Origin: Bacteroidales bacterium
Lineage (GTDB): Bacteria; Bacteroidota; Bacteroidia; Bacteroidales; UBA932
Assembly: GCA_016281315.1 (NCBI GenBank)
Contig: JAEEIJ010000056.1
Span: forward strand, 182,661 to 246,660
DNA: 64,000 bases
Direction of reading: 5' to 3'
Below are positions 42,413 to 43,512 of this stretch, piece after piece (the first letter of the stretch is position 1; every line of letters begins with the position of its first letter). A program made the translations under genes and the position numbers. Under the pieces are notes generated by a model. That model did no database searches, was not told the origin of the DNA, and worked only from the letters and a program-made list of their open reading frames with translations.

Positions 42413-43512
42413 TGGAGGAAGTCTTTCAGGGCTTGTTCCACATAATCGGCCGCCTTCTCCGGGGAGGGGATGTCCTCGCCGATGAAGAGTTTCCCGCCGG
42501 CCGCATTCTCGTGACCGCCGCCGTGGAAATACCGTTGGGCCAGCTGCTGGGCCGATGTCCCCTTCTTCGAACGCACGCTCACGCGGAAATGGCCTTCGTC
42601 CTCCTTCAGGAGCACGCTCAGGCGCACTTCCCCGATGGTAAGGGGTACGTTCACCAGTCCTTCGCTCTCACCTTCCTTGAGGTCGAAGCGGTGCTGGATG
42701 GCTTTCGTGAGGATCATATAGGCTCCGCCGCCGGGCAGGAGGGTCAGGTTCTCGCTCTGCATATACCCCATCAGCCGCACGCGGTTCTCGCGGTAGCTCT
42801 GGTATACCTGCTGCAGGATGGCGTCCCGGTCCACGCCGGAAGCCAGCAGCTCCGAAGCCATCTGCAACGTGCTGGGAAACACCGAATTCGCAAAGTTGTT
42901 CGTATCGGTAGTCATTCCGGTAAGTAGTGCAGTTCCGATGGGGGAGGGTGTTGTTCCGCCAATCTCTGGCCACCCTCGGCCGGATAAGAGGGAGGGGCCC
43001 TCCGGGAGGGGTCGCGAAGCGACGATTGGCGGAACAACACCCTCCTCCATCGCTTTCAACATCCAGTACATCAGTTCTGAGGCGGAAGAAATCTCCGGGG
43101 TGGAGAAAACCAGACCGAAGCTGTCCGTATCGGGATTGAGGTGATGGTCGATGAGGACCTTGCGGGCGGGAGAGGCTTTCAGGACGGGTTCCAGCCCTTC
43201 CGTGCGCTTGAAGGTGTTGGCGTCTACGAGAAAGATCAGATCGGCCTTTTCCACGGCGCTTTCCGCACTGCGTTTCTGGGCGTCGTGAATGTGGACGGGA
43301 AGTCCTTCCGGCAGGATGAACCGCAGGTTGGCGGCGATGCAGTCCGGATACAGGCACGTGACTTCCTTGCCCTGCGCCTGCAGGTACAAGGCAAGGCCTA
43401 CCGTGGAGCCCAGGGCGTCACCGTCCGGGTGGGTATGGCCCACCACGGCGATGCGCTTGGCATCGGCAATCCACTGCCGTAGGCAAGATATGTCGGACGC
43501 GTTCACTAGCAC
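42409..43512 (-). CDS. DHH/DHHA1 family phosphoesterase (NrnA-like)
   Basis: VVGHTHPDGDALGSTVGLALYL, DHHLNPD, GGGHENAAGG. Confidence 0.92.
   Translation of the reverse strand: MLVNASDISCLRQWIADAKRIAVVGHTHPDGDALGSTVGLALYLQAQGKEVTCLYPDCIAANLRFILPEGLPVHIHDAQKRSAESAVEKADLIFLVDANTFKRTEGLEPVLKASPARKVLIDHHLNPDTDSFGLVFSTPEISSASELMYWMLKAMEEGVVPPIVASRPLPEGPSLLSGRGWPEIGGTTPSPIGTALLTGMTTDTNNFANSVFPSTLQMASELLASGVDRDAILQQVYQSYRENRVRLMGYMQSENLTLLPGGGAYMILTKAIQHRFDLKEGESEGLVNVPLTIGEVRLSVLLKEDEGHFRVSVRSKKGTSAQQLAQRYFHGGGHENAAGGKLFIGEDIPSPEKAADYVEQALKDFLQ
42938..43050 (+). repeat. Palindromic element, long type, inside nrnA-like DHH gene
   Basis: Arms ATGGGGGAGGGTGTTGTTCCGCCAATC (42938-42964) / GATTGGCGGAACAACACCCTCCTCCAT (43024-43050): 26/27 complementary; encodes GVVPPIVASRPLPEGPSLLSGRGWPEIGGTTPSP. 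Confidence 0.92.

What the first reader, a model, noticed from the sequence alone, without database searches (positions are those of the whole stretch)
42965..43007. Covarying hairpin and possible pseudoknot in the element core
The first core hairpin is 20 nt in all three long copies: TCTGGCC-ACCCTC-GGCCGGA (in the DHH gene), CTTGTCC-ACCCCC-GGACAAG (folP) and CGTGGCC-ACCCTC-GGCCACG (intergenic, reverse complement of 20535-20554). Stem positions differ in compensating ways, for example C-G/T-A at pair 1, G-C/T-A/C-G at pair 2 and G-C/T-A at pair 5. The loop also matches the purine run just downstream: loop CCCTC with GAGGG (TAAGAGGGAGGGG) in two copies, and loop CCCCC with GGGGG (TATAGGGGGAGGGG) in folP, an apparent compensatory change across a loop-downstream pairing. 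This points to a selected RNA or ssDNA structure such as a pseudoknotted RNA or a transposase-recognised hairpin.
Basis: partly seen in the sequence, partly recalled or inferred. Interest (0 to 1): 0.85.

Follow-up and report, generated by a model that had tools for sequence, protein, structure and literature searches.

The report
Pseudoknotted palindromic mobile element
The hairpin is the heart of a small repeated DNA element that has spread through one genus of gut Bacteroidales, often landing in frame inside essential genes; its single-stranded fold is clearly conserved by evolution, while its long matching arms differ at every site.

Summary
All three window copies are there. A covariance search without the loop pairing built in gave 109 copies in 99 sequences. 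The loop-downstream pairing occurs as five combinations (CCCTC/GAGGG, CCCCC/GGGGG, CCCAT/ATGGG, CCCGT/ACGGG, CCCGC/GCGGG); only four copies have one mismatch. Three further helices covary. Mismatches favour G-U over A-C by 106 to 21, so one strand is selected as a folded single strand, RNA or ssDNA.

It is a non-autonomous palindromic element: about 24 copies in this genome, present in 129 of 200 genomes of the genus and nearly nowhere else. At least 12 copies here sit in frame in housekeeping genes. Cores are copied between sites, but the 20-35 bp inverted arms are not: they differ at each site, stay complementary, and at one site the core is flipped between the same arms. This resembles polymerase template switching between inverted repeats. 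REP-associated tyrosine transposases correlate with copy number, but carry other repeats in their flanks, so the mover is unproven. No Rfam family matches above threshold. Closest in behaviour: Rickettsia palindromic elements and REP/REPIN repeats. I rate it a new variant of a known kind.

The parts
42936..43052 (+). Element copy inside the DHH/NrnA-like phosphoesterase gene (gene on - strand, 42409-43512), read through in frame
   Evidence: Inverted repeat I5, R1 score 90.2 bits, ORF, DHH and DHHA1 domains on either side, homologues lacking it
42936..42964 (+). 5' outer arm (P1), site-specific, ends in inner CAATC
   Evidence: 97% complementary to 43024-43052
42965..42984 (+). Hairpin P2 with loop ACCCTC (the reported hairpin)
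42973..42977 (+). Loop half of the loop-run pairing (CCCTC)
   Evidence: covaries with 42988-42992
42988..42992 (+). Downstream half of the loop-run pairing (GAGGG)
42998..43006 (+). Hairpin P3 (CCC...GGG), flanked on both sides by AGGGG; length and content vary most between copies
43011..43023 (+). Hairpin P4 (GTCGC GAA GCGAC)
43024..43052 (+). 3' outer arm (P1)
20444..20587 (-). Second copy, intergenic; P2 at 20535-20554
56764..56926 (+). Third copy, inside folP (gene on - strand, 56197-57285), in frame; P2 at 56796-56815, loop CCCCC 56804-56808, run GGGGG 56820-56824
6218..7177 (-). REP-associated tyrosine transposase-like gene (Y1_Tnp, HUH motif NHCHVAV), candidate but unproven partner class
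   Evidence: Pfam 20.2 bits, below the 23-bit cut-off

Best explanation
A non-autonomous mobile palindromic element of one Bacteroidales genus. Shown: a conserved core of about 60-110 nt folds, on one strand, into hairpin P2, a loop-run pairing (pseudoknot), P3 and P4, closed by long outer arms P1. Shown: cores are shared between unrelated sites while arms are not. Shown: copies sit in frame in housekeeping genes. Shown: the core occurs in both orientations at the same site. Inferred: the core moves in trans as a folded single strand, handled by a hairpin-recognising enzyme, with RAYT-type Y1 transposases the best candidate class. Inferred: the arms are built at each site by copying one flank into the other (template switching during replication), which also keeps them complementary and flips the core.
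For: Structure: covariation of P1, P2, P3 and the loop-run pairs; G-U over A-C mismatches 106:21 and 90:38 in whole arms. Mobility: about 24 copies here, 129 of 200 same-genus genomes, none in 24 other families by pattern, 2 of 147 non-genus genomes by covariance model; occupied and empty alleles of the same genes. Arms not carried along: 97 pairs of unrelated sites with cores at least 90% identical share the inner 5 nt of the arm (0.63-0.96), then fall to 0.22-0.58, near the random level of 0.25-0.44. Local origin of arms: in murE the outer left arm matches native PED(I) codons, in murB the outer right arm CTCACCCCT is native in the closest relative. Core flip: in a SpoU-family gene P0243 and P0242/L156 have the same arms and opposite cores; 17 of 50 orthologous pairs have opposite orientation. 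RAYT: clade-B RAYT genomes 72/81 with copies, mean 7.1; other RAYT-like 49/86, 2.3; none 8/33, 0.64. In-frame: 12 of about 24 own copies lie in open housekeeping genes.
Against: RAYT genes of the correlated clade are flanked by their own, different repeats and none of the RAYT loci searched holds the element; the correlation is not corrected for relatedness. The native origin of an arm is clear in only two sites and moderate in three others. Arm complementarity could also be kept by RNA-level selection. No transposition, excision or transcription was observed. Nine clade-B genomes have no copies and eight genomes without any RAYT match have some.
Confidence: 0.58

Rival explanations
1. The structure works as RNA: the element is transcribed and its RNA is the mobile or functional form (for instance copied back by a reverse transcriptase, or bound by a protein). 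Covariation then reflects selection on the RNA.
For: Strand-biased mismatches with many G-U pairs; pseudoknot topology; recurring internal-loop motifs in P3.
Against: Single-stranded DNA would give much the same bias (G-T and G-A are tolerated). Core orientation flips at the same site, so no fixed transcript strand. The 45 copies with poor arm scores are, as far as I could read them, also full length, with no 5' truncation typical of reverse transcription. No Rfam family reaches its cut-off.
Confidence: 0.25
2. No dedicated enzyme: the core is a parasite of replication. Its self-complementary ends make polymerases switch template onto it and back, so that it is copied into hairpin-prone sites.
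For: Arms not inherited, core inversion between arms, other unrelated palindromes at the same DHH position in relatives and hairpin-prone empty sites. Template switching is known to homogenise inverted repeats, invert the spacer and create hairpins (PMC8604942, PMC8794818).
Against: Does not explain why the core sequence CCACCC.C..GRGGGAGGGGCCC is so strictly kept, nor the restriction to one genus, nor the RAYT correlation.
Confidence: 0.15
3. Host-useful RNA element (terminator, stability or regulatory hairpin) that spread because it helps.
For: Many copies are intergenic; strong hairpin.
Against: A third to a half of copies lie inside open reading frames in either orientation; presence differs between close relatives at the same gene.
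Confidence: 0.07
4. An intron-like element that is removed from the mRNA.
For: Insertion inside essential genes with a strong fold.
Against: All 12 own in-gene copies keep the frame and have no stop, and the core lies antisense to the mRNA in DHH and folP.
Confidence: 0.03

Closest known systems
Rickettsia palindromic elements (RPE; Ogata et al., as reviewed in PMC10969869)
   Same: About 100-160 bp palindromic repeats, many copies, inserted in frame in unrelated housekeeping genes, no known transposase
   Different: Other phylum and sequence. Here arms are site-specific and only the core is shared, with a covarying loop-run pairing and core inversion, which I did not find described for RPEs
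REP / BIME / REPIN with RAYT transposases (PMC2817692, PMC3116915)
   Same: Short hairpin repeats, non-autonomous, copy number correlates with a Y1 transposase of the host
   Different: Known REPs flank the rayt gene in inverted pairs; this element does not flank the RAYT genes examined, has no GTAG/GTGG-type tag that I could recognise, and is larger with a pseudoknot-like core
bcr1 repeats of the Bacillus cereus group (recalled; only titles seen)
   Same: Mobile-looking chromosomal repeat with conserved secondary structure
   Different: Unrelated host; details not checked here
Coding palindromes by template switching (PMC8604942; Nematomorpha, PMC6649704)
   Same: Near-perfect inverted repeats in coding genes; arm homogenisation and spacer inversion
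   Different: Those have no shared mobile core

Membership tests
MITE (IS-derived miniature element) | Terminal inverted repeats conserved between copies and shared with an autonomous IS | tested here: not met
   Arms are not shared between copies with near-identical cores; no copy with an internal gene seen
MITE (IS-derived miniature element) | Direct target-site duplication | tested here: inconclusive
   None evident in empty/occupied alignments, but the relatives used are only about 75-85% identical
REP/REPIN | Cognate RAYT gene flanked by the same repeat in inverted orientation | tested here: not met
   Clade-B RAYT flanks carry other hairpin pairs; covariance search of RAYT loci found none
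REP/REPIN | Abundance correlates with a RAYT | tested here: met
   Fisher p about 8.5e-10 for clade B against the rest, not corrected for phylogeny
Rickettsia palindromic elements | In-frame insertion in many unrelated protein genes | tested here: met
   12 genes in this genome
Rickettsia palindromic elements | Sequence membership in an RPE family | not tested
   No RPE profiles at hand; hosts are Bacteroidales only
Known structured RNA (ribozyme, riboswitch, omega RNA) in Rfam 15 | Covariance match at the gathering score | tested here: not met
   0 matches in the window; permissive search gives mainly microRNA-type long-hairpin hits far below cut-off
IS200/IS605-type hairpin recognition | Hairpin cleaved by a Y1 enzyme next to a tag sequence | not testable with these tools
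   Needs biochemistry

The most novel reading that the evidence does not exclude
A class of genomic parasite in which only a pseudoknotted core is inherited and the terminal inverted repeats are made anew from the target at each insertion, by inverted copying during replication, with or without a Y1 enzyme. Other palindrome families in the same genus appear to share this design.
Probability: 0.35. Interest if true: 0.88.

Novelty: new variant of a known kind. Interest (0 to 1): 0.72.

Why it matters
If right, it shows a mobile repeat that carries no fixed ends, which departs from the rule that transposon ends are what the enzyme recognises. It would explain how protein-coding palindromes arise, give many natural in-frame insertions of 40-55 residues in essential enzymes, and offer a clean natural case for separating RNA selection from template-switch mutation as the source of stem covariation: the short-range pseudoknot pairs show selection, while the long arms may be mutation-driven.

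Tried and rejected
1) Arms wholly carried by the element: suggested, but those empty sites were too diverged; and contradict it. 2) Arms wholly under RNA selection: not excluded, but inheritance is missing. 3) RAYT as cognate mover: searched flanks of about 20 RAYT loci, no element there; kept only as a candidate. 4) Autonomous version with a gene inside: none in 199 copies. 5) Phage carriage: 0 hits in viral contigs. 6) Rfam relatives: none. 8) Protein-level same-species alleles: DHH P0128/P0132 differ by a different palindrome; SpoU-family P0250 keeps only the right arm, which can be read as pre-insertion allele or as a deletion product, so I did not count it.

Full report
WHAT IS THERE. Each is a complete element: a left arm, hairpin P2 with loop ACCCYC, a T(A/T/C)A linker, a run GRGGG, AGGGGCCC, a variable hairpin P3, GGGAGGGG, hairpin P4, and a right arm that is the reverse complement of the left arm. 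In the DHH gene the element spans 42936-43052, with 29-bp arms that are 97% complementary.

HOW MANY. The own genome has 24 pattern matches, 0 for the reversed pattern. A looser pattern finds copies in 129 of 200 genomes of the same genus. The genome-contig hits listed are all Bacteroidales or Bacteroidia assemblies, many from rumen, gut and faeces, one named Candidatus Coprenecus. Outside the genus a covariance model finds 5 copies in one genome of another genus of the family and 1 in another family, out of 149 genomes of the order including two of this genus. None are in viral contigs and no Rfam family matches at its cut-off.

THE COVARIATION. A first alignment of 67 copies had an invariant loop-run pairing because the search pattern had demanded it. 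I therefore searched with four of the loop positions and all run positions free, and then with a covariance model that does not contain these pairs. In the 109 copies obtained, the joint states are CCCTC/GAGGG 68, CCCCC/GGGGG 18, CCCAT/ATGGG 10, CCCGT/ACGGG 5, CCCGC/GCGGG 4 and four single mismatches. All four Watson-Crick pairs occur at one position and two at the next. Over the whole structure 94.3% of cells pair, with 927 doubly changed cells against 245 in shuffles and at most 183 in slid versions. The alignment was fitted to the nested structure, so those totals lean towards it; the loop-run pairs were not part of the fit.

WHICH STRAND. G-U mismatches outnumber A-C by 106 to 21 over all helices and by 90 to 38 in 154 full arms scored symmetrically; purine-purine mismatches outnumber pyrimidine-pyrimidine ones by 67 to 10 in the arms. 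On the other strand these would be reversed. The strand carrying ACCCTC...GAGGG is therefore the one that is selected as a single strand. This does not tell RNA from ssDNA.

PSEUDOKNOT OR SWITCH. Energy folds of several copies prefer a helix GCC-A-CCCTC/GAGGG-A-GGGGC in place of P2. Both that helix and a pseudoknot would give the same loop-run covariation. P2 itself covaries. Two copies with AGC-ACCC.C-GCT keep P2 and the loop-run pairs but break the extended helix, which favours the pseudoknot. A three-base linker across a seven-pair stem is tight, and the conserved T in P2 with a variable partner may leave room; this is my reading, not a test.

IN GENES. In this genome at least twelve copies are read through in frame without stops: DHH phosphoesterase, folP, murE, murB, truA, truB, trmB-like, a SpoU-family methylase, rsmA/ksgA, tilS-like, an UPF0004/radical SAM enzyme and a radical SAM N-terminal protein. 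Relatives lack the insert at the same position. Over all copies a bridging open frame of 200 bases on each side exists for 54 of 146, against 64% of control positions, so genes are not preferred but are often hit. Antisense-only bridges (30) outnumber sense-only ones (14), which the conserved TAA in the sense strand may explain in part.

THE ARMS. Among 97 pairs of copies at unrelated sites with cores at least 90% identical, arms agree only in the inner five bases and are near random further out. Cores are thus copied and arms are not. Yet each copy has arms of mostly 20-35 bp with about 95% Watson-Crick pairs. At orthologous sites arms differ between species with both sides changed together. 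In murE the outer left arm matches native PED(I) codons of relatives; in murB the outer right arm CTCACCCCT is identical in the closest relative. rsmA, trmB and the SpoU-family gene are weaker cases of the same kind. In the SpoU-family gene, P0243 and P0242 have nearly the same arms but opposite cores, and folP shows both orientations. Arm homogenisation and spacer inversion are the known outcomes of polymerase template switching between inverted repeats (PMC8604942), which can also create and maintain hairpins without selection (PMC8794818). I infer that the arms are local products of this process.

THE MOVER. RAYT-like Y1 transposases are common in the genus, one in the window at 6218-7177. 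A clade of them tracks copy number: 72 of 81 genomes with it have copies (mean 7.1), 49 of 86 with only other RAYT-like matches (2.3), 8 of 33 without (0.64). I counted G000 in the clade on the strength of a 177-residue fragment. The test is not corrected for relatedness or completeness. Against it, RAYT genes have been described as always flanked by their cognate repeats (PMC2817692), and the flanks of clade-B genes carry other hairpin pairs. RAYT is a candidate class, not a result.

VERDICT. A real, selected single-stranded structure at the core of a mobile palindromic element. It behaves like Rickettsia palindromic elements in genes and like REPINs in its correlation with RAYTs, but fails the tested defining features of REPINs (flanking rayt) and of MITEs (shared ends). 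The locally made arms are the most surprising part and the least secure.

Noticed in passing
window 10561-10640 and 31908-31993: A second palindrome family with its own conserved core (TCGGTCGC..AAAAGAAGGCCGATGCTCCC) and site-specific inverted arms of about 21 bp; a related core sits at the DHH site in another species (L194). It seems to share the 'fixed core, local arms' design.
   Followed up: partly
window 6218-7177 and 7210-7390: RAYT-like gene with TGGACCTGGTCC-type palindromes upstream; peptides of the same type (GPGPG) are inserted in frame in murB of this genome (L149).
   Followed up: partly
DHH gene, residues about 155-190, loci L194, L195, L196 and protein P0128: The same variable loop holds different, unrelated palindromic inserts in different species; near-identical proteins P0128 and P0132 differ by one such insert whose left end looks like the inverted copy of the native right flank.
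   Followed up: partly
P3 of many copies, e.g. L146, L147, L155 (GGATACAAGT..ACGCAGGAGAC) and L005 (TGA..GAT): Recurring internal-loop motifs in P3 that look like known RNA three-dimensional motifs (kink-turn-like); not tested.
   Followed up: no
G016, loci L255-L264, L270: About 13 copies with conserved arms and flanks (AGCGGCGGGTGTCCTC...GAGGATTCCCGCCGCT), apparently carried inside a larger repeat.
   Followed up: no
own genome, 12 genes: Most of the genes hit act on tRNA or rRNA (truA, truB, trmB-like, SpoU family, rsmA, tilS-like, radical SAM enzymes); could be chance.
   Followed up: no
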